The translations under genes and the position numbers were made by a program. The notes beneath the pieces are model-generated. The model did not search any database. It was not told the origin of the DNA and was given only the letters and a program-made list of their open reading frames with translations. A stretch of 64,000 bases of DNA. Source: Rhodobacter capsulatus (lineage in GTDB: Bacteria; Pseudomonadota; Alphaproteobacteria; Rhodobacterales; Rhodobacteraceae). Where the stretch lies: NCBI RefSeq assembly GCF_003254295.1, contig NZ_QKZO01000002.1, positions 390,820 to 454,819 on the forward strand, read 5' to 3'. Positions 44,061 to 58,086 of this stretch are shown here, piece by piece. Every line of letters starts with the position of its first letter. The stretch's first letter is position 1.

Positions 44061-44075
44061 TTGGCGCACCCGACA
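44061..44075. repeat. Left attachment site copy
   Basis: TTGGCGCACCCGACA, identical to the tRNA-Arg 3' end at 58072-58086. Flanking bases differ, so the repeat core is exactly 15 bases. Confidence 0.88.
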
Positions 44076-44387
44076 AACGCCGCAGGCCCTTTTCAAGCCG
44101 TTGCAATCAGTAATATTTTTCTTTTTATATCAATGCATTAGATGAAGATCGAGAAGCAGCCGATTTCATCGCCTTGCATCTTTTTGCAATATTTTTGCTG
44201 GCAGCATGGCAAGACGCAGATCGACGCTCGAAACTGGCACTGAGGGACGAAAAAAAACCTCCACCATCCACTCGACCGACCATTTTTTAGGCATCTGTCG
44301 TGAGGTGTGCAAAGGGGCAAAATCGAACCTCCAAAACAGGGAGATCGAACCTCGAAGCGCCGCGCGCCCGCCAATCTGCTGACCAAC
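44076..44387. other. AT-rich left end of the element, no gene
   Basis: About 310 bases without a credible ORF and clearly more AT-rich than the surroundings. ATCGAACCTC occurs twice, at 44322-44331 and 44344-44353, exactly 22 bases apart (about two helical turns), with related GATCGA/TCGAA words around it. This is what integrase arm-type or regulator binding sites would look like; identity is inference. Confidence 0.5.
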
Positions 44388-44400
44388 TGACTGATTGGAG
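44388..44400 (+). repeat. TGACTGATTGGAG box, copy 1
   Basis: The 13-base word TGACTGATTGGAG lies directly before the integrase ATG and recurs at 46795-46807. It includes a GGAG ribosome-binding core, but the identity extends well beyond it. Confidence 0.5.
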
Positions 44401-44401
44401 C

Positions 44402-45748
44402 ATGGAACGCGCGATGCCAAAGATGGCGAAGGAACTCGGCCCCCTCGACATAAAGAGGGCGGCTCACCCTGGCACCCACGAACGGAACATCTGGGTGCAG
44501 GTCGGCGGCGTGTCCGGTCTCATTTTGCAAGTCTCTCCGGGGAACGCGAAGTCTTGGTTGCTGCGCACGCTGATCGGCGGCAAGCGGCGGGCCGTTGGCT
44601 TGGGCGCCTATCCCGAGGTCTCGTTGGCCGAGGCGCGCGACCGGGCGCGGCAGGCGAAGGCGAAGGTGCGGGACGGTATTGACCCGATCGAGGAACGGAA
44701 GGCGACCCGCGCCGCTCTGGCGGCGGCGCAGCGGCGCACATTGACCATGGCTGATGCGCTCGAAATGTGGATCGAGGCCAAGGGGGCGCAAATCGGAAAC
44801 GAAAAGGCCATCAAATACTTGCGCAGCACTTTTGAGACGTATGCCGCCGCCGAAGTCGGCAGGATCGCCGTCTCGGAGATCGAGACGCGCGACATTCTCC
44901 GGGTGTTGCAACCGATCTGGCTGACGAAGACTGAAACTGCGCGAAAGCTGCGGATGCGATTTGAGGCGATCCTGAACTGGGCTGCCGTCGCGGGCCATCG
45001 CCCGCACGACGCCCCGAACCCGGCGCGGTGGAACGGCAATCTGGCCGAACTGCTGCCCCGCCCCGATGCGGTGGCCAAGGGCGCAAATCAACCGGCAATC
45101 GCACAGGCCGATCTGCCCGCGTGGTGGGCCGCCCTCGCGAAGCGCGGTGGCATGGGGGCGGCGGCCCTTCGCTTCGCCTGCCTGTGCGCGAGCCGCAGCG
45201 GCGAGGTGCGGGGCGCACGATGGGAGGAAATCGACCTAGAAGCTGGGCTGTGGATCGTCCCCGCCGACAGAATGAAGATGAAACGCGAACACCGCGTGGC
45301 GCGGTCGCCCGATGCGGTGGCCTTGCTCCGCGACCTGCCGCGTGCCGAGAGTGACCTAGTGTTTTGGGCACCGCGCGGCGGCGCCCTGTCCGACATGACC
45401 CTAAGCAAGGTAATGCGGGATATGCAAGCAGACGCCGAGCGCGCAGAGCAAAAGGCCGGTGAGCCGGTGGAGAAGGCCGGTTGGCGAGACCTCCGCACGG
45501 GCCGCCCTGCTGTGCCGCATGGGCTTCGCTCGTCGTTTCGAGACTGGGCCGCAGATCACGGCGTCGACCACACACTGGCCGAACTGGCTCTGGCCCATGA
45601 TGTCGGTGACGCGACCGAACGGGCCTATCGTCGGACCGATCTTCTTGAGCGGCGGCGTCAGGTCATGTCTCAGTGGTCGGACTTTCTCCATGGGCGGGCT
45701 GCGGAAACCGTAGTGCCGTTCCCTGCCCCGCTGGCGGTGCGGTCATGA
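44402..45748 (+). CDS. int: P4-type tyrosine integrase
   Basis: A 448-residue site-specific recombinase with the N-terminal DUF4102-like arm domain (VSPGNAKSWLLRTLIGGKRR, LGAYPEVSLAEARDRA). Catalytic residues counted from this start: Arg265 (ASRSGEVRG), His373 and Arg376 (HGLRSSFRD), His399 (LAHDVGD) and Tyr409 (RAYRR). It reads away from the left att copy, so it sits at the end opposite the tRNA. ATG at 44414 is an alternative start, since GGAG is only one base before 44402. Overlaps the next gene by 4 bases. Confidence 0.92.
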   Translation: MERAMPKMAKELGPLDIKRAAHPGTHERNIWVQVGGVSGLILQVSPGNAKSWLLRTLIGGKRRAVGLGAYPEVSLAEARDRARQAKAKVRDGIDPIEERKATRAALAAAQRRTLTMADALEMWIEAKGAQIGNEKAIKYLRSTFETYAAAEVGRIAVSEIETRDILRVLQPIWLTKTETARKLRMRFEAILNWAAVAGHRPHDAPNPARWNGNLAELLPRPDAVAKGANQPAIAQADLPAWWAALAKRGGMGAAALRFACLCASRSGEVRGARWEEIDLEAGLWIVPADRMKMKREHRVARSPDAVALLRDLPRAESDLVFWAPRGGALSDMTLSKVMRDMQADAERAEQKAGEPVEKAGWRDLRTGRPAVPHGLRSSFRDWAADHGVDHTLAELALAHDVGDATERAYRRTDLLERRRQVMSQWSDFLHGRAAETVVPFPAPLAVRS

Positions 45749-46419
45749 CGGGCCTGCCACTCCAAGATCCCGCCCTGATCGCTGCGCTGATCGAGGCAGG
45801 AAAACGCACGGGGCGCGAACGGGCCGAAGCCCTTGCCCCCTTCTGGCTCCGCGTAGTTGCCGCAGATGACCGGCTGTCCCGGCTGCGCGATGACCCCGAG
45901 GCTCGCGGCCAGATCGAGGCCCTGCTTCTCCAACTGCGCGACGACGCCGAGGCGAACCCCTTTGTTCGCGAGTGGTCACGCCCCGAGGTGGAGGCGCTGG
46001 CGGCACGGGTGCTGGCCCTGCGCGAAGAACTCGCCGTTCTGGTCGATGACGCCCGCTCGCTGGGCAGGGCCGCCACGGGCGGGCCACTGGACGGATACAC
46101 GGCGGCCATGGCGTTCGCGCTGATCGACCTCTTCGACCGCCCCGAACTGGCCGCCGCCGAAACCGCAGCCGAGGCGCTGCTGGCCGCGCCCGGCAAGGCT
46201 GGCGGCCCGGGCGATTACACGGCGAACACGCGCCCCCGGCCAATTGCCGTTTTCGGCGCTGCGCTTGTTCCGCTGTTCCGCCGCGCAGGCATCCCCCTCG
46301 GCGGAAACGCAAACAGGGACAAGGCTTTCGCGGCCTTTCTTGATATGGCGCACGACTTTGCAACAGGTGGCCCGATCCCCGGTCGGAACGCCCTTCTGGC
46401 AGATCTGCGCCGCCTGTGA
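45745..46419 (+). CDS. Element protein of unknown function, coupled to int
   Basis: A 224-residue, largely alpha-helical and acidic protein. The ATG overlaps the int stop (ATGA), so it is translated with the integrase. A helical middle (EVEALAARVLALREELAVLV) could be a coiled coil; the C-terminal part (IAVFGAALVPLFRRAGIPLG) is more ordered. No family recognised; a recombination-directionality or satellite-specific role is possible but unsupported. Confidence 0.65.
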   Translation: MTGLPLQDPALIAALIEAGKRTGRERAEALAPFWLRVVAADDRLSRLRDDPEARGQIEALLLQLRDDAEANPFVREWSRPEVEALAARVLALREELAVLVDDARSLGRAATGGPLDGYTAAMAFALIDLFDRPELAAAETAAEALLAAPGKAGGPGDYTANTRPRPIAVFGAALVPLFRRAGIPLGGNANRDKAFAAFLDMAHDFATGGPIPGRNALLADLRRL

Positions 46420-46521
46420 TTTTCGCAACTTCCCGGCCCATCGGGGGAGTTACCGAAAGGTTTTGAGAGCCATCGAAATATGTTGAAATTGGTTGGCACC
46501 CCAACAAAACGAGGTGCAACG

Positions 46522-46707
46522 ATGTTCCTTTCCGACAAACAAACCGGTGAACGCTATAGCGTCAGCCGCGTGACCGTCTGGCGGTGGCGCAAGGCGGACC
46601 CGACCTTCCCCGCCCCTGTTCAGTTGTCCCCGGGGTGCGTCCGGTGGCGCCTTTCCGACTTGGAAGCCTGGGAGGCCGCCAAGGCCGCCGCGACTTCCGC
46701 CGCGTGA
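46522..46707 (+). CDS. AlpA-like excisionase/regulator
   Basis: A 61-residue MerR-like winged-helix protein: SVSRVTVWRWRKADPTFPAP with VRWRLSDLEAWEAAK, the standard AlpA/Xis pattern. In P4-type elements such proteins activate integrase or act as excisionase. GAGGT sits 6 bases before the ATG at 46522; an upstream ATG at 46480 would add 14 residues with no ribosome-binding site. Confidence 0.85.
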   Translation: MFLSDKQTGERYSVSRVTVWRWRKADPTFPAPVQLSPGCVRWRLSDLEAWEAAKAAATSAA

Positions 46708-46733
46708 AAGCCGCCCCCCCCCAAATCTCCACC

Positions 46734-46761
46734 TTGCGCGGCAATCGGATCGGGCTATTAT
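46734..46761 (+). promoter_or_regulatory. Promoter of the replication operon
   Basis: TTGCGC (46734-46739), a 16-base spacer, and TATTAT (46756-46761, 5 of 6 to consensus). The leader then holds the TGACTGATTGGAG box and hairpin CCCGGC-AATGC-GCCGGG (46829-46845) before the 46866 gene. Confidence 0.55.
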
Positions 46762-46794
46762 CTTCTCAAGCCGAAAGCCCACCCGGCCCGTGAT

Positions 46795-46807
46795 TGACTG
46801 ATTGGAG
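46795..46807 (+). repeat. TGACTGATTGGAG box, copy 2
   Basis: Identical to 44388-44400. Here it is in the leader, about 34 bases after the -10 and 58 bases before the ATG at 46866, so it is not simply that gene's ribosome-binding site. A short ORF starting at 46794 is out of context. Confidence 0.5.
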
Positions 46808-46865
46808 ACATAGCGGCGTCACCAGTCACCCGGCAATGCGCCGGGCATCACGAAAGGGGGCATCC

Positions 46866-47297
46866 ATGCCTTCATCGCAACGAAAAGGCCCCGAGAGCGC
46901 CCGCCAGCGCCCCGAGGCCATTCAACTCAAGATCACGGGAGAGGATACGGCGAAAGCCGTTCCTACACAAGCGGCAAGCCCGTTTGCGTGGTTGCAGGCG
47001 GTGGCGGAAGTCCACGGGGCGAGCCGCTTGACGCAGAGCGGCCTGAGGCCCGTCGATCTATACCTCGCCGTCTGGCTTGCGGGTCGCCTTGACCGCGTCA
47101 CCATGACCGCCCGGGCCGGATCGGATGAATGGGCGGCGGCCTGCGGGGTTCATCCGCAAGGCGCCCGGGGCGCGATCAAGCGCCTGCGCGACGCCGGTCT
47201 GCTCCGCGTGGTTGGGCACGAAAAACACGAAGGGCCGGGGCGCCCTGCGAACATCTACGCCGCGACCGTGCCCGGCGCGGATGGGGGTGCGGAATGA
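46866..47297 (+). CDS. Winged-helix protein, probable replication or regulatory factor
   Basis: A 143-residue protein. After a basic N-terminus, residues 55-143 form a winged helix: LRPVDLYLAVWLAGRLDRVT, then WAAACGVHPQGARGAIKRLR and DAGLLRVVGHEKHEGPGRPA (the wing). AAAGGGGG precedes the ATG. It overlaps the larger replication-like gene by 4 bases, and the two may act together at the iterons. Function inferred from fold and context only. Confidence 0.7.
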   Translation: MPSSQRKGPESARQRPEAIQLKITGEDTAKAVPTQAASPFAWLQAVAEVHGASRLTQSGLRPVDLYLAVWLAGRLDRVTMTARAGSDEWAAACGVHPQGARGAIKRLRDAGLLRVVGHEKHEGPGRPANIYAATVPGADGGAE

Positions 47298-48502
47298 ACG
47301 CAACCGCAAATCACCTCTCGAACCCGAGGGGCCGCGATCCTTTCGCAATCGCGAAAGAGCGATACGTTCTCGATGTCGTGCGCCACGCACAGGGAGAGGC
47401 GGCGACGAAAGTCGCCATCGCCCTAGCCCTCAGCATTGCAAGCCGGAAAGAGTTCGAGGCTTCTGGTGCTTTGCTGGCATGGCCATCCATGCGGACGATT
47501 TCCGAGGCGACCGGGATTTTCAGGAGCCGGATCGAACGCGGCGTCAAGGCGCTTGAGGCTTCGGGGCATTTGACCGTCGAGCGGCCGGAAAAGCGCGGCG
47601 CGACGCATCACAACCGCTACATCTTGCAGATCCCGTATGGCCGCACGGATGCGGCCAATCCAGATGACGCAATTGGCCGCACGACTGTAGCCAATTCAGC
47701 CGATGAAATTGGCCGTGCCGATGCGGCCAATCGGGAACAGGGAATTGGCCGCACAGCTGGGGCCAATATTGGCCGCACCGATGCGGACGCAATGGCCGCA
47801 CCGGTAGGGCCAAACCTTACTGAGAACCCGCCTGACGGCGCGGGGGCGTCAACGCCCCCAGCGCCCGACACGCCGGAGGACGGCGCGGTTTGTGATGTAG
47901 AGGCTCAAGATCAAGACGCGAATGCGGCCACAAGCGCGGGCGCGGTCGAACGCGCCCGCTTGACCAGCGGCGTTTCTTCCTTGGCAGATCGGGCGCGTGA
48001 GGCTCAAACGCTGATCCCCGTGACCGCCGTTGATTGTGGCGATGATCCTGCGGCGCTCCACTTCAAGGATGGGGTCGATGTTTCGCTCGATGAATTCGAC
48101 CGGTTGCACGCGCAGGCGCGCGAGGCGCTGGCGCGGCAAGACGCGGCGCGGGCGCTTGGTGATGCGCTGGAACTTCTCGACAATGAGGCTGATGAACTCG
48201 CGCCCGAGGTATTGAACGGGCTCGTTCAGAGTGACGCGGAAGCGCGCGCCGCAATCGCCGCCGCAGTAGTGGACGCCGTTGACGGCGCCGCCGAGGGGCG
48301 CGAGGGGCGGTGGAAGATGGTTGTTCGGGCCGTGCGGCGGGTGATCACCACCGAGTATTCGGGAGAACGCGGCATCGCTTGTGCCGACGCCGCCGAGGCG
48401 GTGTTGCGCGAGGCAACCCGACCGATTTTCCGTGAGCGTGACGCGGCCCGCAAGGCCGCGAAGGTCAAAGCCGAAGTCGTGGAGGAAAGCCAAAATGTCT
48501 GA
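47294..48502 (+). CDS. Replication-initiator-like protein with internal iterons
   Basis: A 402-residue protein. Residues 15-115 form a winged-helix DNA-binding domain (SMRTISEATGIFRSRIERGV, then LTVERPEKRG), as in phage replication O proteins. Residues 116-170 are a tandem repeat with recurring IGRTDAAN-like units; at the DNA level these are 24-base inverted repeats. The C-terminal 230 residues are acidic and helical with no ATPase motif, so a host or helper helicase would be needed. It overlaps the next gene by 8 bases. A phage lambda O-like role is inferred. Confidence 0.7.
   Translation: MNATANHLSNPRGRDPFAIAKERYVLDVVRHAQGEAATKVAIALALSIASRKEFEASGALLAWPSMRTISEATGIFRSRIERGVKALEASGHLTVERPEKRGATHHNRYILQIPYGRTDAANPDDAIGRTTVANSADEIGRADAANREQGIGRTAGANIGRTDADAMAAPVGPNLTENPPDGAGASTPPAPDTPEDGAVCDVEAQDQDANAATSAGAVERARLTSGVSSLADRAREAQTLIPVTAVDCGDDPAALHFKDGVDVSLDEFDRLHAQAREALARQDAARALGDALELLDNEADELAPEVLNGLVQSDAEARAAIAAAVVDAVDGAAEGREGRWKMVVRAVRRVITTEYSGERGIACADAAEAVLREATRPIFRERDAARKAAKVKAEVVEESQNV
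47635..47817. repeat. Six iteron-like inverted repeats inside the initiator gene (candidate origin)
   Basis: Copies of a 24-base unit with consensus arms ATTGGCCG ... CGGCCAAT. The GGCCG cores start at 47639, 47675, 47711, 47747, 47771 and 47794, giving spacings of 36, 36, 36, 24 and 23 bases. Copies 1-4 are the best; 5 and 6 have degraded right arms. The 36-base period keeps the reading frame. A small AT-rich zone for melting is not obvious next to them. Confidence 0.75.
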
Positions 48503-48938
48503 ACTTGTCGTTCTCGACGTCACCGTCTCACGCATTTTGGGCGGCTTGAACGCCTATCTGACCGCAAAGCGCCTCGCGCGCTTCCTCGACGCTGGGGACC
48601 GCGACGGTGCGACGGCGGAATGGCGCCGCCGCCGCGCCGAGGCCGAGCGGCAGATTTCCTCGAAGGTCGGGGTGCCCGAGCCGATCCGCGCCGAGGTGCT
48701 GCGCCGCTACTGCGGCGCCGTCCGGGAAGAGATCGTCAAGCTGCGCGGCAGCGCTGCAATAGGCATCGAGAACCGGACGAAATCCGACGATGGCCGCCCC
48801 GTCGCGAAAATCCTCGCGTTTCCGACCCGGACCGATCCGTTGCCGGTCCCATCTTTTGCCGCGTGGAACGGCCCGACGAACGACCCGGACGAGTGGGCGC
48901 GCTGGTCGGCGCGCGAGATGTTTGGCGGTGACGCATGA
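48495..48938 (+). CDS. Element protein of unknown function
   Basis: A 147-residue protein: an alpha-helical N-terminal half (LGGLNAYLTAKRLARFLDAG, EWRRRRAEAERQIS) with many Arg and Glu, then a linker and a C-terminal segment WARWSAREMFGG. No family recognised. It overlaps the initiator gene by 8 bases and the next gene by 4, so it belongs to the same operon. Confidence 0.65.
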   Translation: MSELVVLDVTVSRILGGLNAYLTAKRLARFLDAGDRDGATAEWRRRRAEAERQISSKVGVPEPIRAEVLRRYCGAVREEIVKLRGSAAIGIENRTKSDDGRPVAKILAFPTRTDPLPVPSFAAWNGPTNDPDEWARWSAREMFGGDA

Positions 48939-49330
48939 GCGGCACGGCCCCTGAAACCCGCCGCCGGTTCGCGCGGGTGCGGGGCGTCGTGATTGAATTT
49001 CCGGTGGCGCCCCGCCCGAAAGTCGCCCAGGGCGAACCGGCGCCGCCCCTTTTGCCGCCCGGTGGGCCTACGTTCTATATAGCGAGCGAAGATCTGCCGC
49101 CGCCGCCGTCGCGGCCGTGGTATCGACGCCCGCCGCCGATCTGGCAAACCGATAGCCGTACGTTTTGCATGGATGATCCGGGGCGGTTGCGGTTTGCACC
49201 GATGGCCGACACCGGCAGCGCATTCTTGGCACTTTGCGAGGACGGCGCAGCCTCGCCGAGACGCGAAAGCCGAGAGGCTGCAGCGCTTGCTTCGCAACTG
49301 GGTCGAACACGACCAAGGACGGCGATATGA
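48935..49330 (+). CDS. Proline-rich element protein of unknown function
   Basis: A 131-residue protein starting in an ATGA overlap with the previous gene. Rich in Pro and Arg (LPPGGPTFYIASEDLPPPPS), with little predictable fold. Its last 50 codons overlap a different frame (49173-49676) that looks more protein-like, so either the genes overlap by 158 bases or a frameshift has split one gene near 49.25 kb. Confidence 0.5.
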   Translation: MSGTAPETRRRFARVRGVVIEFPVAPRPKVAQGEPAPPLLPPGGPTFYIASEDLPPPPSRPWYRRPPPIWQTDSRTFCMDDPGRLRFAPMADTGSAFLALCEDGAASPRRESREAAALASQLGRTRPRTAI

Positions 49331-49676: not shown

Positions 49677-49722
49677 GATCGAAGCGTCGGGGGCACCTTT
49701 CGATGAAGAAAAGGAGCCTCCG

Positions 49723-50226
49723 ATGACCCCCATCGAAAGAAAATATTCGGAACTTGGCGCGCAGTTGCATGGGCGGGCGCCGATCCCCACCAGCGTGCCC
49801 TTGCCGCCCCCGACGATCCCGAAACCGGCGGTTCCGACCGCGCAGATGACGGTTCAGGGCATCGACCTTGCCCCCGCCGCCCGCCTTGGCGCTCTGGCCG
49901 CAGTGCGTGATCAGCACCGGGCGCGCGCCAGGATGGCCTCCGACAAAATGCACGCCATCCGCGAGCAAATTTCCGAGCGCGAACTGCGCATCAAGCTGGT
50001 CGCGGAACGTGCAACCCCCGGCTTCGAAATCGAAGTCGAAGCGCAAGTGGCTGTTTTGGAATCAGAAATTTCGCAGCTTCGCGCCGCGCAGATGACCGCG
50101 CAGGCCGAGGCGGCCGAGGCTGGCGAAGCCGCTGGCGAAGCCGACCGGCTGTTCAAGTCCGCCCTCAAATTCTGCGACGAACGCGGCATCACCGTTTCGG
50201 TTATTTTTGCTGGGGAGCGCCGCTGA
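49723..50226 (+). CDS. Coiled-coil element protein
   Basis: A 167-residue protein: a Pro-rich N-terminus (LPPPTIPKPAVPTAQ) and a long coiled coil from about residue 55 to 145 (KMHAIREQISERELRIKLVA, AVLESEISQLRAAQ). AAGGAG upstream is strong, suggesting high expression and a new translation unit. Could be structural or regulatory; no family recognised. Overlaps the next gene by one base (TGATG). Confidence 0.65.
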   Translation: MTPIERKYSELGAQLHGRAPIPTSVPLPPPTIPKPAVPTAQMTVQGIDLAPAARLGALAAVRDQHRARARMASDKMHAIREQISERELRIKLVAERATPGFEIEVEAQVAVLESEISQLRAAQMTAQAEAAEAGEAAGEADRLFKSALKFCDERGITVSVIFAGERR

Positions 50227-50747
50227 TGTTCGCGCAGAAGTCGAAAAAACCCATGTCTGTCAATGACCTGCTCGGCACTGTCGATGCGATGCGCGACCAG
50301 ATCGCAGCCCTTCGCGAAGATCGCACCCAAGTCGAAAATGCGCCCCGCCCGCTGGCCGAGGTCATGGGCGACCTCGATGATCACCTCGACTTCCTATCGA
50401 CGGCTTCCGTCGATGCGCCGGGGCTCCACGGCCTGCGGGCACGCGGTGTCCCCGTTGAACTGAAGGCATCTGCGCCGATCACGCTTGGCCTCTTGGTCGC
50501 CGTGGCGCGCGAACCCCTTCGCCGCATCCTCGAAGAGCAACTGGGCGACCTCGAAGCCGCCCGCCCGGGCATGGCCGAGGCCGACCGGCAAGCCCGGCTG
50601 GCCGAACTGGATGGCCAGATCCTGCGGGCCGAGATGGCCGAAGAAGGCGCGATCCGCGGTCTGGAAGGTCTGGGCGTCAGCATTCAGCGGCGGGCTGACC
50701 TGAACCCGCTGGTCGCGCTGGCTGCCGATCAGGCCCTCGCGGGGTAA
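50226..50747 (+). CDS. Helical element protein of unknown function
   Basis: A 173-residue protein with two helical regions (MSVNDLLGTVDAMRDQIAAL; MAEADRQARLAELDGQIL) around a more hydrophobic middle (ITLGLLVAVAREPLRRILEE). It is coupled to the previous coiled-coil protein by a one-base overlap, so the two may form a complex. No family recognised. The last gene before a 370-base noncoding gap. Confidence 0.65.
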   Translation: MFAQKSKKPMSVNDLLGTVDAMRDQIAALREDRTQVENAPRPLAEVMGDLDDHLDFLSTASVDAPGLHGLRARGVPVELKASAPITLGLLVAVAREPLRRILEEQLGDLEAARPGMAEADRQARLAELDGQILRAEMAEEGAIRGLEGLGVSIQRRADLNPLVALAADQALAG

Positions 50748-51117
50748 CGGAATGCACGACATGGCGCCCGGTCTGGCCTCCTACCGACCCCGCTTTGTCG
50801 TGAAGACGTGCGCTGGGGTTGGCGCGCGCACGGCCCGGGTGCCCCTGCGCCCGGGCCATCACCCACACCGCCCACCGAAAGAGCCATCAGGAAGGCCGCG
50901 GGCGCACCTCTTGCGCGATGGCTATGCACCTAGAGGGCAAGGCGGGAGAGCCGCCCACGGCCCGCTGCGTGGCGCTGCTGGGCACCCCGCCCCCCCCTTA
51001 GGGACCGTATCCGGCCCCCCCGGCGCACGCGGCACTTCGGTGGCCCGGGTTTTCACCGATTTTCAGACCCCAGAATTTGCATTTTGGTTTGGTTTGCAAC
51101 CACGAAATGAGGACGAA
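50748..51117. other. Noncoding gap between replication-side and packaging-side genes
   Basis: 370 bases without a convincing ORF. It has a perfect hairpin GGCCCGGG / CCCGGGCC (about 50836-50861) with no T-run, two long C-runs near 50990-51020, and an AT-richer end before 51118. It separates the two functional halves and could hold a promoter, a packaging (cos/pac) site or a small RNA. Nothing decisive is seen. Confidence 0.5.
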
Positions 51118-51306: not shown

Positions 51307-51532
51307 ATTGCATGACTCCGCCCGGCAGTTCGTGGGTTTCGGCCATCCGCGCGAGGCGTTGAAGTTGTTAGCGACCGCGTCGCTGACAATTTCGAACGTG
51401 GCGCTGGTGCGCCAGTTTCTCGCGGCGTGGCCGCAATTTCAGTCGGTCAAACACGCCGTCACGTTCCGCGCCGTCGCCACTGCACGCACCGAGGCGGTAG
51501 AAGCCCTCACCGCCGCGCGCATCGAGAAATGA
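51290..51532 (+). CDS. Small element protein
   Basis: An 80-residue protein, ATG at 51290 with GGGAG upstream and a 17-base overlap with the previous gene; ATG at 51299 is an alternative. Helical with repeated Ala-Thr-Ala segments (ALKLLATASLTISNVALVRQ). No family recognised. Eleven bases before the scaffold-like gene. Confidence 0.6.
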   Translation: MIVMTELHDSARQFVGFGHPREALKLLATASLTISNVALVRQFLAAWPQFQSVKHAVTFRAVATARTEAVEALTAARIEK

Positions 51533-51543
51533 AAGGACTAGAA

Positions 51544-52335
51544 ATGACCCCGGAAGCCATCAAGCAAGAAGCCGCGCGCCGTGCCATGAACGAACCTGGC
51601 CTTTCCGCGTCCCAAAGGAAGGCTTTCGCCGCCAAGGTGGAGGCCGATCTGCGCGCCGAGGCCGATGCCGCCGCGCAGGCGCAGTCCGCCGCCGCCGAGA
51701 AGGCCGAGGCCAGCGCCGAACGGGCGAGGGTGTCGGGCGTGATCCGTGTTGGTGCCGATCTTGGCCGCGCCCGGCAGGCCGCCCGTCTTGCGCTGACCAC
51801 GGCACTTGACGCCTCTGGGGCGAAGGCGCTGCTCTCGACCCTGCCGACCGACATGCAGGCCACGCCAGAGGCGCTGGCGATCCCATCTGAAATCGGCAAC
51901 TTCGGCACCGTCGCCACGCAGGTCGAGCGGCGCCGCATCGCCTCAATCCTTGGCCACGAGGCAGCCGGTGGCAGGTTCCAGACCGCCACCGCCCTTGCCT
52001 TTTCGACCGGCCTCGACGTGACGCAGGCCGTGGCCGCGCTGCTGGCCGTGCCACGGCAGGAAGCGCAGCACTACCAGAGCCTCGAACAGCGCAGCCGCGA
52101 CGCGGGCGAATTCGGCGCGGACCTTTCGGGTGGTGCGGGCCGGTCGCAGGGTGAACGCACCACGGCCATGTGGAGCAAAGCAGTCGCAGCCGCGAACGCC
52201 AGCATCGGCGCGGCCCCCGCGCCCGCCACCGACACGCCCCCCGCGAACCCGTTCATGAATGACGCGGAACGCGCCGCCCTGAGCGGCGCTGCCGGGCTGG
52301 CCGGTGCGGCGCTGGCCGATCTGGGGCGGGGGTGA
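51544..52335 (+). CDS. Capsid-scaffold-like protein (C-terminal region of prohead protease, without the protease)
   Basis: A 263-residue protein. N-terminal helical, Ala/Glu-rich coiled-coil part (residues 1-57). Then two copies of a roughly 44-residue unit: residues 59-102 (ERARVSGVIRVGADL ... ALLSTLPT) and 128-171 (ERRRIASILGHEAAGGR ... AALLAVPR). The unit resembles the segment after the S49/ClpP domain in phage prohead proteases, which serves as scaffold (as in lambda C/Nu3). The protease itself is absent. AAAGGA precedes the ATG. It lies two bases before the first small-terminase-like gene. The match is from pattern memory; other helical proteins are possible. Confidence 0.55.
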   Translation: MTPEAIKQEAARRAMNEPGLSASQRKAFAAKVEADLRAEADAAAQAQSAAAEKAEASAERARVSGVIRVGADLGRARQAARLALTTALDASGAKALLSTLPTDMQATPEALAIPSEIGNFGTVATQVERRRIASILGHEAAGGRFQTATALAFSTGLDVTQAVAALLAVPRQEAQHYQSLEQRSRDAGEFGADLSGGAGRSQGERTTAMWSKAVAAANASIGAAPAPATDTPPANPFMNDAERAALSGAAGLAGAALADLGRG

Positions 52336-52337
52336 TC

Positions 52338-52838
52338 ATGGCCGCGCCCGCCGATTTGCCGCCCGATGCGATCACCACCGAGGCCGCTGCGCGTCTGCTC
52401 GGCCTCGGGCAAGAACGGGTGCGGCAACTCACCAAAGCCGGGTATGTGCCGCGCATCGCACGTGGCCACACGACCATCGGGGGGGCCATTCAAGGCTATA
52501 TCCGTTTTCTGAAATCCGAGGCCCGGAAAACCCCAGCCTCAACCGCCGCCAGCCGGTCGCACGATGCAAAGGCGGCGCTGATCGCCGCCTCGACGGCCCG
52601 GAGAAAGGCCGAAATGATCGACCTGAGTGAAGCCGAGGCAGTCGTCACCCGGATCGCCCGCACCTCCTGCACCCGCCTGCGCCGCGTTCCGGTTGGGGCC
52701 AAGCTGACCGGCCAGACGAGAACCACCCTCGCCACCGAGATCGCCGAAGCGGTCAAGGCTATCGAAGCTGCCCGCGACCGTGCGCTGGCGGCGCTGACGA
52801 CCGGCGATCTTCGTGACCTCGGGGGTGGCGATGACTGA
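52338..52838 (+). CDS. Nu1-like terminase small subunit homologue 1
   Basis: A 166-residue protein. The N-terminal winged helix (TEAAARLLGLGQERVRQLTK, AGYVPRIARG) and GAIQGYIRFLKSEAR match phage lambda Nu1-type DNA-packaging proteins. A helical dimer region follows with the characteristic ARRKAEMIDLSEAEAVVTRI. Small terminases recognise the packaging site; a large subunit is absent here, so it would have to work with one supplied by a helper phage. Overlaps the next gene by 8 bases. Confidence 0.65.
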   Translation: MAAPADLPPDAITTEAAARLLGLGQERVRQLTKAGYVPRIARGHTTIGGAIQGYIRFLKSEARKTPASTAASRSHDAKAALIAASTARRKAEMIDLSEAEAVVTRIARTSCTRLRRVPVGAKLTGQTRTTLATEIAEAVKAIEAARDRALAALTTGDLRDLGGGDD

Positions 52839-53322
52839 CGCGCCCCTTCCGCGATCCGTCGCCCGCCTGATGGCGCAGGTCATGCCGTTTGAAATTGCGG
52901 CGCGCGAACTGCGCGCGCCCGCCTCGGTGATCCGTCAGGCCTCGGGCGCCAATGGGCGCATTGCCTTCTCTGATGCCGTCGCTGCCGCAGTCACTTTCTA
53001 CCGCGCCAAGATCAGCGACGACGCTTTCGAACGTGCGCTGCGTCCGACCCGGCCCGGCCCCCGCCCTGGACAATACGGCCCGCCGCCTGAGCGCCTGCGC
53101 CTGCGTCGTGACGCTGCCTGCGCCGCCCAGCACCTCGCCACCGAGATCGAAGCTCAAACCCACCGCCTTTCCGCCGTGGCCCGCGCCCAAGCCCCGGAAG
53201 GCCCCGCCGATGCCCGCCGTGTCGCCAGGCTGGGCCAAGACCTTGAAGGGCTGGCAGCGGCCCTCGCGAAGCGTAACTCCCGCGCCCTCCGGGGCCTCGG
53301 ACCCAAGGAGATCAAGGGATGA
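52831..53322 (+). CDS. Element protein between the two terminase-like genes
   Basis: A 163-residue basic protein. The N-terminal 70 residues (VARLMAQVMPFEIAARELRA then NGRIAFSDAVAAAVTFYRAK) could be an HTH-like domain; the rest is helical and Arg-rich. It overlaps both neighbours (8 and 4 bases). Possibly a third DNA-packaging or DNA-binding factor, but no family recognised. Confidence 0.6.
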   Translation: MTDAPLPRSVARLMAQVMPFEIAARELRAPASVIRQASGANGRIAFSDAVAAAVTFYRAKISDDAFERALRPTRPGPRPGQYGPPPERLRLRRDAACAAQHLATEIEAQTHRLSAVARAQAPEGPADARRVARLGQDLEGLAAALAKRNSRALRGLGPKEIKG

Positions 53323-53765
53323 CCACCCCCAAGCCGACCGCCACCATCACACTTGCCGGACTTCGCAGGCTGACCGGGGCCGAGGCGGGCGAGTTGGAAA
53401 GCATGATCGCGGCGGGCACGCTGCCAGCTCTCGACGGCGACCGGCTGCCAATGGTCGAAGCGGTTCAAGCCTTCTTGCATCATCTCAGGGATACCGCCCG
53501 CACCGCCAGCGCCAGCGCGGCGATGGCCCGCGCCCGTGATGCCAGAGCCGAGGCATCCGAACTCGCCCTGGCGATTTCCCGCCGTGACCTTGTGCCGGAT
53601 GCAGAGGCCGAAACCGCCGCCGATTACGTCTGCGGCGTGATCGTGGACCGGGTTGGCGGCATGCCTGCCCGCGTCACCCGCGATCTTCGCGACCGGCGCC
53701 GGATCGAGGAAACCCTGCGGGCGGCGCAGGAGGGCATCGCGGCTGATCTGGCCTCCGACACCTGA
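53319..53765 (+). CDS. Nu1-like terminase small subunit homologue 2
   Basis: A 148-residue protein with the same layout as the 52338 product: N-terminal helix-turn-helix region (LRRLTGAEAGELESMIAAGT), then MVEAVQAFLHHLRD, then helical ARDARAEASELALAISRRDL and VPDAEAE, corresponding to the Nu1 linker and dimerisation helices. The first domain is more diverged than in homologue 1. Ends the operon, followed by a strong terminator. Confidence 0.55.
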   Translation: MTTPKPTATITLAGLRRLTGAEAGELESMIAAGTLPALDGDRLPMVEAVQAFLHHLRDTARTASASAAMARARDARAEASELALAISRRDLVPDAEAETAADYVCGVIVDRVGGMPARVTRDLRDRRRIEETLRAAQEGIAADLASDT

Positions 53766-53789
53766 TCGGTGGGGCGGTGGCTTGGGACA

Positions 53790-53820
53790 GGGGCGGCATC
53801 GTGCCGCCCCGTTTCGTTTC
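53790..53820 (+). terminator. Terminator of the packaging-side operon
   Basis: A perfect 9-base stem GGGGCGGCA / TGCCGCCCC (53790-53798, 53802-53810), loop TCG, followed by GTTTCGTTTC. Confidence 0.8.
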
Positions 53821-53953
53821 CGGCGCGGGCACGGGATGGCGTTTGCAATTCGAGAGACTTCTGCCCTCAGCGATACGCCGCGTTATTGAATGATACGCTT
53901 TTCAGTGCTATTTGAAGCACTCTGGAAGGCACCTCTTTTCGGCGGTGGAAAGC

Positions 53954-54202
53954 ATGGCGAACGTAATTCATGCCGGGGTGACGGCGAGTGTCACCGAACT
54001 CAAGCGCGACCCGATGGGCACGATGGCCGCCGGGCAAGGTGCTGCGGTGGCGATCCTGAACCGCAATCAGCCCGCGTTCTACTGCGTGCCTGCGGCGGAA
54101 TATGAGGCAATGGTCGAGCGCCTGGAAGATGCCGAACTGAATGCGCTGGCCGATGCCCGCGCGGGCGGCCCCTTCGTGCGCGTGTCGCTGGATGACCTAT
54201 AG
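53954..54202 (+). CDS. Phd/RelB-type antitoxin
   Basis: An 82-residue antitoxin: N-terminal DNA-binding part (SVTELKRDPMGTMAAGQGAA, VAILNRNQPAFYCVPAAEYE) and a C-terminal toxin-binding tail (LADARAGGPFVRVSLDDL). The pattern is that of StbD/Phd-type proteins. It overlaps the toxin by 11 bases. Autoregulation is expected; repeated GATACG words at about 53875 and 53893 are a possible operator. Confidence 0.85.
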   Translation: MANVIHAGVTASVTELKRDPMGTMAAGQGAAVAILNRNQPAFYCVPAAEYEAMVERLEDAELNALADARAGGPFVRVSLDDL

Positions 54203-54476
54203 TCTTGAGTTTCACGAAAGCGCCCTGAAGGAATGGAAGGCGCTTGGGGCATCGGTGCGCGAGCAATTCAAGAAGAAGCTGGCCGAGCGGCTGGAAAGCC
54301 CTCATGTGCCCGCGTCACGGCTGCATGGCGCGCAGAACCGTTACAAGATCAAGCTGCGGGCCTCCGGGCATCGCCTTGTCTATGAGGTGCGGGATGCGCA
54401 GATCGTGGTGGCGGTGATCGCGGTGGGCAAACGGGAACGCAACGCGGTGTATCGGGCCGCAGCCAAGCGCCAGTAG
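54192..54476 (+). CDS. RelE/ParE-type toxin
   Basis: A 94-residue toxin with the RelE fold: YSLEFHESALKEWKALGAS, LHGAQNRYKIKLRASGHRLV, YEVRDAQIVVAVIAVGKRER. RelE members cleave mRNA on the ribosome. With the antitoxin just upstream it forms a maintenance or anti-phage module. Confidence 0.87.
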   Translation: MTYSLEFHESALKEWKALGASVREQFKKKLAERLESPHVPASRLHGAQNRYKIKLRASGHRLVYEVRDAQIVVAVIAVGKRERNAVYRAAAKRQ

Positions 54477-54488
54477 ACGGGGGCAGGA

Positions 54489-54626
54489 ATGATCCGCGAC
54501 ACGATGACCGGCCCGGGGGCGGATGACGAGGCGACGGGTTCGCAGATCGCGCAGGCCCGGCCCTTCGCGGAGGCTTTCCCGGCGCTGGCCGAGGCGATGC
54601 GCAAGGCTTCCGGCCTAACCGCCTGA
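54489..54626 (+). CDS. Possible small protein downstream of the toxin
   Basis: A 45-codon frame, ATG at 54489 directly after AGGA, ending TGA. The second half (PFAEAFPALAEAMRKASG) is amphipathic and helical. Whether it is expressed is unknown; it is followed by 185 bases without a gene. Confidence 0.35.
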   Translation: MIRDTMTGPGADDEATGSQIAQARPFAEAFPALAEAMRKASGLTA

Positions 54627-54811
54627 TAGATGGTCGGATCGACGGAGGGGCCCATTTCTGGCCCACTGACGCGCCTCTTGCCCTGATGGCCGAGAGAGGT
54701 AGCGGGAACCCGAAGATGCGCACCACGCGCGAGCCTATGGCCGCTGCGGCCTTTCCCTGCCCTTGAGCGGGTGCCATCTTGTCGCATCCCCATAGCAGGA
54801 GGCAGCCGCCC

Positions 54812-55384
54812 ATGAACGCCCGAGCAACCGTGCGCAATCCCGAAATGGCCGCGCTCTTGGAGCAATACAGCGCCCGCTTCAATGCGCGCCGTGCCGAGGC
54901 CTATGCAGCCGCGAACGCCGCCCCCGAGCAATGGACCCCGAAGGCGGTGGGGGAAACCATGATCGAGGCCCTGCGCTGGGCGCAATGGGCGGCTGGCCGG
55001 GTCGGGTCGGGCGGCATCAAGACAGTGGCGCTGCCCTTCGTCGTGACGTTGGACGAACACCTTGCGAATGGCTGGGGCCTGCCAGAAACCGCGGGCGACG
55101 ACGAACCGGACCCCCGGCGGCTGCGGGTGATGCCCTCGCCCGTACAGGTGGCCCGCCATGAAGCCGCCCTCGATTGGCCCCGGCAATACCTGCGCGACCA
55201 TGAGGGCAGCGCCCGCATCCTCACCCTGTGGCTGCGCTGCAAGATCACCCGCAAGCCCTTCGATGCTGCCGTGAAGGCCCGGGGCACGATCAGCCGAACA
55301 ACGGCCTATGCTCTACGCGACCGGGCGCTGTCCGTCATTTCGCAGGGGCTCGACCGCGACGGGGTGCCGCATCACCGGCCTTGA
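54812..55384 (+). CDS. DUF6362-like helix-turn-helix protein
   Basis: A 190-residue protein with AGGAGG before the ATG. The C-terminal half (RHEAALDWPRQYLRDHEGSA, then GTISRTTAYALRDRALSVIS) ends in an HTH resembling the DUF6362 family often found beside phage packaging genes. The N-terminal half has an acidic helical start and a central beta-rich part. Function unknown, probably DNA-binding. Confidence 0.55.
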   Translation: MNARATVRNPEMAALLEQYSARFNARRAEAYAAANAAPEQWTPKAVGETMIEALRWAQWAAGRVGSGGIKTVALPFVVTLDEHLANGWGLPETAGDDEPDPRRLRVMPSPVQVARHEAALDWPRQYLRDHEGSARILTLWLRCKITRKPFDAAVKARGTISRTTAYALRDRALSVISQGLDRDGVPHHRP

Positions 55385-55464
55385 CCTTGCAGAGGCGGGC
55401 GAGGGCCGCAATGGTTGCCTCAGGTGCCCTTGCTCCCCGAACCACCACCACGGCGACGGCACCG

Positions 55465-55486
55465 GGGGCGGCTTCATGGCCGCCCC
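55465..55486 (+). terminator. Hairpin after the DUF6362-like gene
   Basis: GGGGCGGC / GCCGCCCC, 8-base stem with a 6-base loop. No real T-run follows, so termination is uncertain. Confidence 0.4.
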
Positions 55487-55512
55487 TTCCCGTTCCCGGC
55501 ATAGGCGCCCCC

Positions 55513-56151
55513 ATGGCAGAGATCGCCGAGAACCTGCACCGCCGGGAACTGGGGGAGATCGAGCGCGCCGAACTGATGGCCAGGTGGGTCGAGATCACCG
55601 CCGCAAAGCAGGACGCCAAGGAAGCGGCAGCAAAGGCTCAGGCAGATCAATCGCGCCAAGTTGGCGCGATTGAAAGCAAGCGCGCCGATGGCAAGGGGCA
55701 CCGTAAGCAAGGCGGCATCAAACAGGCCGCCCGTGAGATCGGCGTCCCTGAACAGACCGTTCGCCGCGCTGTGAAGATCGCTGCCCTCGCCCCCGAGGCG
55801 AAGAAGCTGGCGAAGCGCCTGAAGGCCCCGCAGGCAGTCTTGCTTGAGGCGGCGAAGCACGACGTTGCAGACGATCAAGTGGCGGTGATCCGTGGGCGGA
55901 TGCAGGAGAGCGCCGTTAAGATCGCGGCGCTTTCGCCCGTGCTTGAGCATCCGCACTTCGGAAAAAAGGTTCGCTGGTCGCGAGTGGCCAAACTGTCGCA
56001 AGAAGTCACGATAACGATACCTTTCGTTGAGGAATCTGCGCGAGGATGCAATATTGGTCTTGCGCTTCGGGAACTTGCTTTCCGAGCAAGGGGAACGGAA
56101 TGGCTTACAACGCACGCAAAGCAGCCCAAACAATCGCCTTCTTCGCTATGA
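55513..56151 (+). pseudogene. Truncated ParB-like protein
   Basis: The frame from ATG 55513 begins MAEIAENLHRRELGEIERAE, which matches the end of the ParB N-terminal (ParB/sulfiredoxin) domain, and continues with the HTH region (HRKQGGIKQAAREIGVPEQT, VRRAVKIAALAPEA). The N-terminal CTPase part is missing and no ribosome-binding site is seen. After about residue 130 the sequence no longer looks ParB-like and its end overlaps the Panacea gene. Most likely a remnant of a phage ParB-like gene; a short regulator made from the HTH part is possible. Confidence 0.55.
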
Positions 56152-56663
56152 AGAACGGCGAGCGTCCGCTTGAGGTCATCAAGGCTGTAAAGCTGGTCTA
56201 TCTTGCCGATCGTGAAAGCATCCGCCGGTTTGGTTTTCCGATCCAAGACGAAAGCCGGGTTTCGATGCCGCATGGCCCCGTGAACTCTGAAACCTATTCG
56301 ATGATCAACGGCGAATATGACACCGCAGCCTCCGGCTGGGCGGACTTCGTACGCGACCGCGAAGACAACAACCTTTCGTTGGCGCGCGACAATCTCACCG
56401 AAGACGACCTTGATGAATTGAGCGATGCCGACGTTGAAGTTCTGAATGCCGTCTGGGATCGCTTCGGCCACATGGGCAAATGGCAACTGCGCGACTGGAC
56501 ACATGTTCAGGCCAATGTGCCGGAATGGGAAAACCCCGGCCGGTCTTCTTGGCTCATTCCTCTCGAACGTATGATGGCTCACCTTGATGTTCAGAACGTC
56601 GAAGAGCAGGCAGCCGCCGTCCGCGACTTTGATCGCATCGACACTCTGTTCCGGGCGCTCTGA
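56100..56663 (+). CDS. Panacea-domain (SocA/DUF4065-like) antitoxin
   Basis: A 187-residue protein with the Panacea pattern: AAQTIAFFAMKNGERPLEVI, KLVYLADRESIRRFGFPI, SMPHGPVNSETYSMINGEYD. Panacea domains act as versatile antitoxins or as ClpXP adaptor-like proteins (SocA). AAGGGG precedes the ATG. Its partner follows 6 bases later, so it very likely forms a two-gene toxin-antitoxin pair. Confidence 0.8.
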   Translation: MAYNARKAAQTIAFFAMKNGERPLEVIKAVKLVYLADRESIRRFGFPIQDESRVSMPHGPVNSETYSMINGEYDTAASGWADFVRDREDNNLSLARDNLTEDDLDELSDADVEVLNAVWDRFGHMGKWQLRDWTHVQANVPEWENPGRSSWLIPLERMMAHLDVQNVEEQAAAVRDFDRIDTLFRAL

Positions 56664-56669
56664 AACTTG

Positions 56670-57053
56670 ATGGCCTATCGTCGCGCTGGAACCCTGCTTA
56701 TTCCGTCAGGCCCCGCCGCCGATCTGGGCCGCCGTCATCTTCATGTTGTCTGCAACGACACCGATGAAGACGGCCTGAACTTGCTGGTTTCCGTGACCAC
56801 TTGGACAAACAATCTGTGCGACCCGACCTGTCGGCTTGAGGCATACGAACACCCTTGGCTGACGCACTCTTCCTACATTCTCTATCGCAAGGCCGCGCTC
56901 CGCGAAGCCACGCAACTTGATGCAGGTATTGAGCAAGGTCTTTTCACCGTGCAAGAGCCGATGAACGGCCAAACCTTCCTTAGGATCAGGAATGGCGTCT
57001 GCGTATCACCGCAAACACCGCGCAAGATCAAGCGCTACTTCGGCTGCCTCTGA
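56670..57053 (+). CDS. Putative toxin partner of the Panacea protein
   Basis: A 127-residue protein that begins RRAGTLLIPSGPAADLGRRH and continues LHVVCNDTDEDGLNLLVSV, with a C-terminal SPQTPRKIKRYFGCL. The small beta-barrel-like start resembles MazF/PemK-type folds, but known catalytic residues cannot be assigned. Proteins of this pattern are often found next to DUF4065/Panacea genes. Toxin activity is inferred from position. Confidence 0.6.
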   Translation: MAYRRAGTLLIPSGPAADLGRRHLHVVCNDTDEDGLNLLVSVTTWTNNLCDPTCRLEAYEHPWLTHSSYILYRKAALREATQLDAGIEQGLFTVQEPMNGQTFLRIRNGVCVSPQTPRKIKRYFGCL

Positions 57054-57182
57054 GCCGCTATCAGCTGGCCTCGGCATCCACCGCAACGAAGTCTGCAAGC
57101 CGCGCGACTAGATAGCGCCGATCTGGGAGAGCCCGCATGGTTCTCGCACCGGAGGACGTGCGAGATCTGCACCGCCCGCCCG

Positions 57183-57812
57183 TCATCCTTCCATCGCCTC
57201 GATCAACTCCGGCCCATCATCGCGCAGCCCGAACGGCGCAACCGGGTGATGCGCCAGCATCGCCCCGGCCCCGAGGCCCGCCACATCGTCGGTGCTGGCA
57301 AGCCACGCCTCGCGCTCGTCGGCATTCAGGATCACCGGCATCCGGTCATGCAGCCCGCCCATCGCCGCCGTCGCCGCCCTCGTCATGATCGTGCAGGTCA
57401 GGAGATCGCGCCAGCGGCTCGCCAGACCGGCCAGATACAGGTTCGCCTCGTTGCCCCCGGGCCGGAAGAAATGCGGCTGGCGGGCGCCCTTTGGCCCGCT
57501 CCATTCATAGAACCAGCCGACCGGGACAAGGCAGCGGCCATGCCGCCAGACCTGACGAAACGTCGGCTTGTCCCGCGCATCTTCAATCCGGGCATTGAAG
57601 GTTGCCGCCTTCCAGTCCCGAGCCTCTGCGCCGTCGAACCATGACGAAATGAGGCCCCAGCGCGCTTCCATAGCGATCAGCGGCGTCTTGGCGAGGATCG
57701 CCACCGTCTCGGTCGGCTTGACGTTAAACCGGCCGCCGAACGGGTCGAGCTTGATCTGCGACATGTCCACTTCGGTGTTGCGCAAATTGGGGTCGATGAT
57801 CCGCCCGCACAT
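57183..57812 (-). CDS. SRAP (YedK/HMCES) domain protein
   Basis: A 209-residue protein with Cys2 (MCGRI) that, after Met removal, becomes the nucleophile forming thiazolidine crosslinks at abasic sites in single-stranded DNA. Other conserved parts are FNVKPTE, WGLISSW, FNARIE, CLVPVGWFYEWSGPKG and HDRMPVIL. Host YedK proteins protect replication forks; a copy on a mobile element may shield single-stranded replication intermediates. Leftward, between the TA module and the tRNA. Confidence 0.9.
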   Translation of the reverse strand: MCGRIIDPNLRNTEVDMSQIKLDPFGGRFNVKPTETVAILAKTPLIAMEARWGLISSWFDGAEARDWKAATFNARIEDARDKPTFRQVWRHGRCLVPVGWFYEWSGPKGARQPHFFRPGGNEANLYLAGLASRWRDLLTCTIMTRAATAAMGGLHDRMPVILNADEREAWLASTDDVAGLGAGAMLAHHPVAPFGLRDDGPELIEAMEG

Positions 57813-58071
57813 GCCCGCCGCCTCCCTGCCGTCGCTGCGTCCGGTTCAGAATGCCCGATGGCGCGGCGCTTGTCGCGCCGCGCTGCGGCCCGGGATGCGA
57901 AAAGGATCTGGCCGCCCTGCACCCGTCAAATTCGTCGCGCTGATCGGGAGCCGCCGCAACATTCAGTAACGCGACGTTGCATTTCGTGGCTGCAGGATTG
58001 GCTAGAGCGTTGGCTAGCAAGGAAAACGGCGTTCCGTTTTTTCTTTTAATTTCAAACGCTTATAATGATAA
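57813..58071. other. Right-end noncoding region of the element
   Basis: About 260 bases before the tRNA. It has TTGGCTAG twice (near 58000 and 58012), and a hairpin AAAACGG-CGTT-CCGTTTT (58023-58040) followed by a T-rich tract, which can terminate rightward transcripts. AT-rich next to att, like the left end. Confidence 0.45.
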
Positions 58072-58086
58072 TTGGCGCACCCGACA
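58072..58086. repeat. Right attachment site copy (3' end of tRNA-Arg)
   Basis: TTGGCGCACCCGACA, covering the last 14 bases of the tRNA including CCA, plus one base. Identical to 44061-44075. Confidence 0.88.

What the first reader, a model, noticed from the sequence alone, without database searches (positions are those of the whole stretch)
44061..58086. Candidate phage satellite integrated in tRNA-Arg(CCG)
The 14.0-kb element has exact att repeats, an integrase, an AlpA-like switch, its own replication genes with iterons, a scaffold-like protein and two small-terminase-like proteins, but I find no large terminase, portal, capsid, tail or lysis gene. Known satellites (P4, PICIs) combine self-replication with a small terminase and/or a capsid-size factor that redirect a helper phage. 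I know of no described satellite of this make-up in Rhodobacteraceae. An eroded prophage is the main alternative.
Basis: partly seen in the sequence, partly recalled or inferred. Interest (0 to 1): 0.88.

Follow-up and report, generated by a model that had tools for sequence, protein, structure and literature searches.

The report
Phage satellite in a tRNA gene
A 14-kilobase piece of mobile DNA in this bacterium looks like a parasite of bacterial viruses: it lacks the genes to build or fill a virus particle but carries a packaging-site-like label and assembly-steering genes that could let it be packed into another virus's particles, and related elements sit in several related bacteria.

Summary
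The element (44061-58086) lies between exact 15-bp att repeats at the 3' end of tRNA-Arg(CCG); two sister genomes carry the uninterrupted site. It is not a lone relic: with five relatives it makes six att-bounded elements at tRNA genes in four genera, 12.3-15.1 kb. They share orf173, a scaffold protein without protease and TerS-like proteins; no intact TerL, portal or major head gene was found in the six. Core genes are under purifying selection (dN/dS 0.12-0.56).

New here: a cos-like site at 51000-51010 (AGGGACCGTAT after a C run), exact or altered in relatives. In 38 of 80 IMG/VR loci holding it, TerL starts 641-1999 bp downstream on the same strand; the best TerL hit is elsewhere in none. 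Five elements share a 29-bp box after it that 39 of 39 phage sites lack. This suggests nicking by a helper TerL at a shared core, with satellite TerS choosing satellite DNA, and a scaffold that may resize the helper head. Packaging, resizing and helper are untested; no cos-matched resident helper was found. Some IMG/VR relatives carry a major head or tape-measure gene. New variant of a known kind.

The parts
44061..44075 (.). attL, 15-bp copy of the tRNA-Arg(CCG) 3' end
   Evidence: exact repeat; empty site in G002 and G003
44414..45748 (+). tyrosine integrase (P4-type arm domain)
   Evidence: phrog_1 1e-44, PF13356/PF22022/PF00589; 90% aa identity in G016, 53-62% in G067, G299, G369, 41% in G002. 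Not specific to this element type
45745..46419 (+). orf224, overlaps int by 4 nt
   Evidence: 89% in G016, dN/dS 0.13; the same overlap is reported for the essential iolg of PICMIs (PMC10803314, passage); no family hit
46480..46707 (+). AlpA-like regulator/excisionase
   Evidence: PF05930 25.0 bits, cut-off 21; phrog_66 2e-9
46794..47297 (+). HTH protein, perhaps replication-related
   Evidence: weak hits only (phrog_1123 8e-4, O-like 0.04-0.06); 83% in G016
47294..48502 (+). replication initiator, O-like, with iterons at 47638-47809 inside the gene
   Evidence: phrog_391, phrog_8102; repeats D1, D2; relative in L262 (7e-52) with a similar repeat unit at the same place, by eye; other replication-like genes there in G016 and G002, by eye
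48495..48938 (+). orf147, conserved hypothetical
   Evidence: homologues in G002, G299, L076
48935..49676 (+). orf131 and orf167b: matched by one reading frame in G016 and in G002, in two frames here
   Evidence: also in two frames in L076
49723..50226 (+). orf167, coiled-coil-like (by eye) core protein
   Evidence: G016 60%, G002 48%, dN/dS 0.35-0.56; G067 4e-8 and L262 4e-7 directly, G299 only through G067; G369 and G158 match each other and were placed by position
50226..50747 (+). orf173, all-helical core protein of unknown fold
   Evidence: relatives in the ten other elements examined: G016, G002, G067, G299, G369, G158, L076, L081, L101, L262; not found in the partial copy on G000:C3; dN/dS 0.30-0.44; AlphaFold pLDDT 79, no Foldseek match at E<=0.001
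50801..51110 (+). conserved region with no conserved reading frame, holding the cos-like site
   Evidence: three-way DNA alignment
50991..51010 (+). cos-like site; core AGGGACCGTAT at 51000-51010 after a C run
51036..51064 (+). satellite box (cosB-like by position)
   Evidence: 0-3 mismatches in 5 of 10 elements where the site was found, 7-10 in the other 5; 9 or more in 39 of 39 phage sites
51118..51306 (+). orf62, short core reading frame
   Evidence: G016, G002; L076 weakly, L262
51290..51532 (+). orf80
   Evidence: 65% in G002; no hit in G016
51544..52335 (+). scaffold-like protein without protease domain; scaffold motif seen twice (by eye)
   Evidence: phrog_17040 (two stretches) and phrog_8399, searched from an upstream start at 51463; alignments; dN/dS 0.36-0.43; helical, low-confidence model, pTM 0.29
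52332..52838 (+). TerS-like protein 1 (gpNu1-like HTH)
   Evidence: phrog_57 8e-8; 64-72% in G016 and G002, dN/dS 0.20-0.24
52831..53322 (+). orf163, between the two TerS genes, no family hit
   Evidence: relatives in G016, G002 and G000:C3; none in PHROGs or Pfam
53319..53765 (+). TerS-like protein 2
   Evidence: phrog_57 1e-8; 70-73% in G016 and G002; one full and one partial copy in G000:C3
53954..54476 (+). cargo: Phd/YefM and RelE/ParE toxin-antitoxin pair
   Evidence: phrog_2268 4e-20, phrog_1213 9e-21; PF05016 over cut-off
54812..55384 (+). DUF6362-like, core
   Evidence: phrog_6836 4e-21; PF19889 below its cut-off; dN/dS 0.22-0.38
55459..56151 (+). ParB-like protein (within the reading frame 55228-56151; start uncertain)
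   Evidence: phrog_3264 5e-6
56100..57053 (+). cargo: SocA/Panacea-domain protein and orf128
   Evidence: PF13274 6e-20; phrog_19071 1e-18, unknown function
57183..57812 (-). SRAP (SOS-response associated peptidase) protein
   Evidence: PF02586 4e-42; 90% in G002, none found in the G016 element
58072..58086 (.). attR in the tRNA-Arg(CCG) 3' end

Best explanation
An integrated phage satellite, one of a family in Rhodobacteraceae-group bacteria. Shown from sequence: insertion at tRNA 3' ends, an O-like initiator with iterons, a conserved block of scaffold-like and TerS-like genes without a detected TerL, portal or major head gene, and a cos-like core shared with TerL-bearing phages. Inferred: when a cos phage of that type grows in the cell, AlpA-type control lets the element excise and replicate; the helper TerL nicks the shared core; the element's TerS-like proteins, binding the satellite box beside the core, choose satellite DNA over helper DNA; and the protease-free scaffold joins helper capsid protein to build a head suited to about 14 kb. 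A variable cargo slot follows the TerS genes.
For: Clean empty sites in G002 and G003. Six att-bounded elements at tRNA-Arg (twice), -Ser, -Gly (twice) and -Glu, repeats 14-19 bp, 12.3-15.1 kb. Conserved block while replication genes, cargo and (in G002) the integrase differ. dN/dS 0.12-0.56 in 20 of 20 comparisons. GpA TerL: none in G000, G299, G369, G158; outside the element in G002, G016, G067. Broad TerL, major head and portal families: no hit inside the elements of the seven genomes. Motif: 38 of 80 IMG/VR loci have TerL 641-1999 bp downstream on the same strand, 0 elsewhere, 27 no TerL hit, 15 too short. Exact motif in 4 of 394 family genomes, 3 of them at elements (G000, G369, G158), none for the reversed-pattern control. 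Box: 9 or more mismatches in 39 of 39 phage sites.
Against: No helper is demonstrated. The own genome has no GpA TerL hit and one motif site, the element's own. The GpA TerL loci of G002, G016 and G067 (about 3.7 kb each) hold no core with 0-1 mismatches, nor one with up to 3 after a C run. Not all GpA phages have the motif: L063, L064 and several named phages lack it. One conserved gene lies in two frames here. Five of 10 elements with the site lack the box, and the box pattern was written from some of the five that have it. 24 of 80 motif loci show neither TerL nor element genes, so chance or other sites are among them. Cos is read from position, not mapped ends. orf173 and orf167 have no known function. 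L076's protease also scores on a portal family, phrog_21 (5e-12), which I read as a protease part of that profile.
Confidence: 0.8

Rival explanations
1. An eroded prophage: lambda-like head genes were lost by deletion and what remains is drifting.
For: L073 keeps a 43-residue match to a TerL start at the TerS-scaffold junction, a likely relic of deletion from a phage gene order. A gene lies in two frames here. G000:C3 holds a fragmentary copy in which no integrase was found.
Against: The same block in six att-bounded elements of similar size in four genera, purifying selection among the three same-genus ones, the same functions missing each time, other modules exchanged around the block. Origin by deletion is likely; drift now is not.
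Confidence: 0.1
2. A genomic island not packaged by phage, whose TerS and scaffold genes only disturb phage assembly (a defence island).
For: Toxin-antitoxin and Panacea-type cargo; a satellite scaffold-like factor, Rcm, inhibits phage reproduction (PMC12409344, abstract).
Against: Such an island needs no cos-like site or box; both are conserved in the same-genus elements. PADLOC gave no convincing defence hit.
Confidence: 0.06
3. The satellite family is real but this copy is dead.
For: Gene in two frames, no matched resident helper found.
Against: Integrase, att sites, initiator, cos-like site, scaffold and both TerS genes are open and conserved. A helper need not be resident: PICMIs are satellites of virulent phages (PMC10803314, title). 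L076 also has the split gene.
Confidence: 0.1

Closest known systems
Gram-negative PICIs, EcCICFT073 type (PMC6092414, PMC9026076, passages)
   Same: int, AlpA, replication genes, size near 15 kb, island cos whose cosN is near identical to the helper's while cosB differs, island protein with a TerS-like winged HTH
   Different: two proteins with TerS-family hits in place of one Rpp, a phage-like scaffold protein, and an O-like initiator with no primase hit
SaPIs (PMC12409344 abstract; PMC10690885 passage)
   Same: some combine an own TerS with an internal scaffold-like size factor
   Different: TerS-bearing SaPIs are described with pac sites; here a cos-like site; the scaffold resembles the C-terminal part of phage protease-scaffold proteins
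Capsid-forming PICIs (as described in PMC10690885, passage)
   Same: relatives L076 and L081 carry a major head gene
   Different: no TerL or portal detected; the window element has no capsid gene
PICMI (PMC10803314, passages)
   Same: int with a 4-nt overlapping gene, AlpA
   Different: no terS, sid or ppi homologue and no cos or pac was found in the PICMI115 system (passage); the primase of the PICMI core has no counterpart hit here
AH14a/AH14b of Pseudomonas (PMC4936722, abstract and passages)
   Same: small integrated element thought to use a larger phage's capsid
   Different: AH14b is reported to lack structural genes; here scaffold and TerS genes are present

Membership tests
Phage satellite (general) | integrated between att sites, own integrase and replication gene | tested here: met
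Phage satellite (general) | lacks a complete set of virion and packaging genes | tested here: met
Phage satellite (general) | mobilised by a helper phage | not testable with these tools
   needs induction or infection
PICI | AlpA-type regulator near int | tested here: met
   AlpA in all E. coli PICIs per PMC6092414 passage
PICI | Pri-Rep type replication protein | tested here: not met
   O-like hits only, no primase hit
PICI | att sites never used by prophages; genes unique to PICIs | not tested
   not compared
P4-like | P4 capsid and control genes (Psu, Sid, Delta; names recalled) | tested here: not met
   no such family among the Pfam or PHROG hits
Capsid-forming PICI | major head protein, protease, portal, TerL and TerS encoded | tested here: not met
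   TerS-like genes only
PICMI | int, AlpA and primase core | tested here: not met
   int and AlpA found, no primase hit

The most novel reading that the evidence does not exclude
A satellite family that supplies the measuring and sorting parts of the virion and leaves the machinery to the helper: a scaffold to set head size, in some members (L081, L101, L262) a tape-measure protein of 771-873 aa, with tail or neck proteins, to set tail build, and TerS-like proteins that redirect a helper TerL to a private box beside a shared cosN. If so, these satellites would remodel head, tail and DNA choice together.
Probability: 0.3. Interest if true: 0.87.

Novelty: new variant of a known kind. Interest (0 to 1): 0.72.

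Why it matters
No held paper contains both 'phage satellites' and 'Rhodobacteraceae', and none of the 12 papers listed of 143 for satellite/Rhodobacterales terms describes such an element by title. A shared cos-like core beside an element-only box makes the question of how satellites divert packaging testable in a new host group. The range from relatives with a major head gene (L076, L081) to the scaffold-only window element suggests steps between full-capsid and capsid-remodelling satellites.

Tried and rejected
Resident helper: GpA TerL loci in G002, G016 and G067 checked for the motif, none. One search, run with up to 2 mismatches, gave scattered hits that I judged by eye to be chance; one search is the stricter repeat. 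Named phages: TerS2 had 1 weak hit (Microcystis phage, E 2e-4) and the scaffold none at E<=0.01 in 50,697 phage records. TerS1 in IMG/VR: 8 relatives of 63 stretches, 28-47% identity; the two read, L063 and L064, are TerL-bearing phage contigs without the motif. Scaffold in IMG/VR: 0 of 600 stretches. TerS2 in IMG/VR: 1 of 74, L262. orf173 fold: nothing at E<=0.001 in PDB or BFVD. Named phages and the motif: Paracoccus phage vB_PyeM_Pyei1 has AGGGACCGTTC after a C run between pyei1_p31 and TerS; the stretches read of Serratia phage BZS1 (with an annotated cosL of other sequence), AmM-1, Sc-Yong805-1, RcKemmy, AcaML1, LPPA56, CRP-811 and PBb001 lack it. Printed cos sequences seen for VarioGold and two Citromicrobium prophages differ from it (passages); the Paracoccus virome paper mentions a cohesive-end test in its methods, and no cos sequence was found in it by the terms tried. 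The motif letters AGGGACCGT occur in 70 papers, none of the 10 listed on phages by title. Rfam: only the tRNA. NCBIfam: no hit over cut-off. PADLOC: weak hits only. Not done: G310's motif site, the seven further scaffold-motif matches (long reading frames, guessed to be prophage proteases), and the 24 motif loci without TerL.
Full report
What is there. The element runs from 44061 to 58086. Exact 15-bp repeats mark its ends and the right one is the 3' end of tRNA-Arg(CCG). In G002 and G003 the same flanks meet without it, at 93-95% identity. The order is integrase, a small overlapping gene, AlpA, an HTH protein, an O-like initiator with iterons, small conserved genes, orf167 and orf173, a conserved stretch without conserved reading frame, a scaffold-like protein, TerS-like, orf163, TerS-like, toxin-antitoxin cargo, a DUF6362-like protein, more cargo, and an SRAP protein on the other strand.

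No machinery. The own genome has no GpA-type TerL hit. The broad TerL family hit all seven genomes searched, the major head family and the lambda-type portal family four each; no hit lies inside an element. In the own genome the head protein and a portal fragment lie on contig C18, a separate remnant.

A family. In the genus TerS2 is found in 4 of 18 genomes: G000, G002 and G016 strongly, G005 weakly (E 1e-5) in a different, TerL-bearing element. In 394 family genomes the scaffold profile matches 12: G000, G067, G299 and G369 strongly; G158 weakly (4e-5) but with orf173, AlpA, an integrase and DUF6362 nearby. The other seven were not pursued. Six elements have att repeats at a tRNA gene: window 15 bp, G016 14, G002 18, G067 16, G299 16, G369 19; lengths 14.0, 13.7, 14.1, 14.1, 15.1 and 12.3 kb. 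G000, G002 and G016 are one genus, so this is four genera. G369 contig C13 has the length of NZ_VSIY01000005.1 of Maritimibacter fusiformis, and its element proteins match that record at 100%.

Selection. Twenty pairwise comparisons over eight genes of the three same-genus elements give dN/dS 0.12-0.56. Some synonymous distances exceed 1, so the values are rough.

The cos-like site. The stretch 50801-51110 is conserved between window, G016 and G002. Its centre is a C run then AGGGACCGTAT. The 11-base core is exact in window, G369, G158, L076, L081 and L101, has one change in G016, G067 and L262, two in G002 and four in G299. An IMG/VR scan found 86 stretches, 80 of them examined as loci. With eleven TerL baits, 38 of 80 have their best TerL hit starting 641-1999 bp downstream (median 768) on the same strand, none elsewhere, 27 have no hit, and 15 have under 1.5 kb to look at. 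Three of the 27 (L076, L081, L101) carry element genes. In four phage contigs read in detail a reading frame precedes the site and TerS-like (by position) and TerL frames follow. In 394 family genomes the exact motif occurs in 4 (G000, G158, G369, G310), the reversed-pattern control in none. Paracoccus phage vB_PyeM_Pyei1 has a near copy, 9 of 11, at the same place. Other GpA phages read lack it. In enteric PICIs, too, cosN is near identical to the helper's and cosB is not (PMC9026076, passages).

The satellite box. Past the core, window, G016, G002, G067 and L262 share a 29-bp box with 0-3 mismatches to the pattern; G299, G369, L076, L081 and L101 have 7-10, and 39 of 39 phage sites (38 contigs and Pyei1) have 9 or more. 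The pattern was written from some of the same elements, so the good scores are partly circular; the phage contrast is not. The script's filter missed the site in L266, the G158 stretch, so its box was not scored.

Range of make-up. L076 (13.3 kb) has a protease-scaffold, major head protein, decoration protein and two TerS; L081 (11.7 kb) TerS, tape measure and major head protein; L101 (14.0 kb) scaffold, tape measure and neck protein; L262 (14.7 kb) scaffold, two TerS, tail protein and tape measure; G067 decoration and a baseplate-hub-family tail protein; G369 a neck protein. No TerL or portal was found in these by tblastn baits, apart from a 43-residue TerL-start match in G369; L076's protease scores on phrog_21, a portal family, as told under evidence against. 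The IMG/VR contigs may be trimmed, so absence there is weaker evidence.

How it probably works. Helper TerL and capsid proteins are required because none was found. TerS-like genes, a private box and a shared core suggest a redirected terminase, as in PICIs; a scaffold without protease suggests head-size control, as for CpmB and Rcm in SaPIs (PMC12409344, abstract). These steps are inferred. The predicted structure of orf173 matches nothing known; the scaffold model is helical with low confidence.

Verdict. A phage satellite of a family that failed at least one tested feature of P4-like elements, PICIs, capsid-forming PICIs and PICMIs. Searches for a printed description; only listings were seen for most papers, none of which names such an element in this host group, and most subscription papers are not held.

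Noticed in passing
G000:C3 about 263.0-271.7 kb (L009, L010): Fragmentary relative in the same genome: orf163, one full and one partial TerS2, DUF6362, SRAP and a restriction-like gene, no integrase found; tRNA-Ala(GGC) about 0.4 kb further on.
   Followed up: partly
L026 (G005:C18) 6749-17777: Another small element beside tRNA-Ser(CGA), read by eye as integrase, head genes, TerL and TerS: resembles a capsid-forming satellite.
   Followed up: partly
L267 (G000:C18) about 8.8-10.7 kb of the stretch: Prophage remnant: portal fragment, decoration and major head protein.
   Followed up: partly
L011 (G000:C4) 918-10541: Island read by eye as integrase next to tRNA-Arg(TCT), with its own SRAP gene (83% aa); SRAP sequences also on C3 and, broken up, on C15.
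   Followed up: no
L085, L113, L114, L123, L126, L127, L138, L150: A group of IMG/VR contigs holds the motif inside a repeat-rich, palindrome-like context with no TerL hit; probably unrelated to cos.
   Followed up: no
window 47638-47809 and L262 1780-3126: Iterons inside the initiator gene that also give repeated protein segments; similar unit in two distant elements.
   Followed up: partly
downstream of TerS2 in the window, G016 and G002: The cargo slot differs in each: Phd-RelE here, a BrnT-like pair in G016, restriction-like and XRE/ImmA-like genes in G002 (the last two genomes named by eye).
   Followed up: partly
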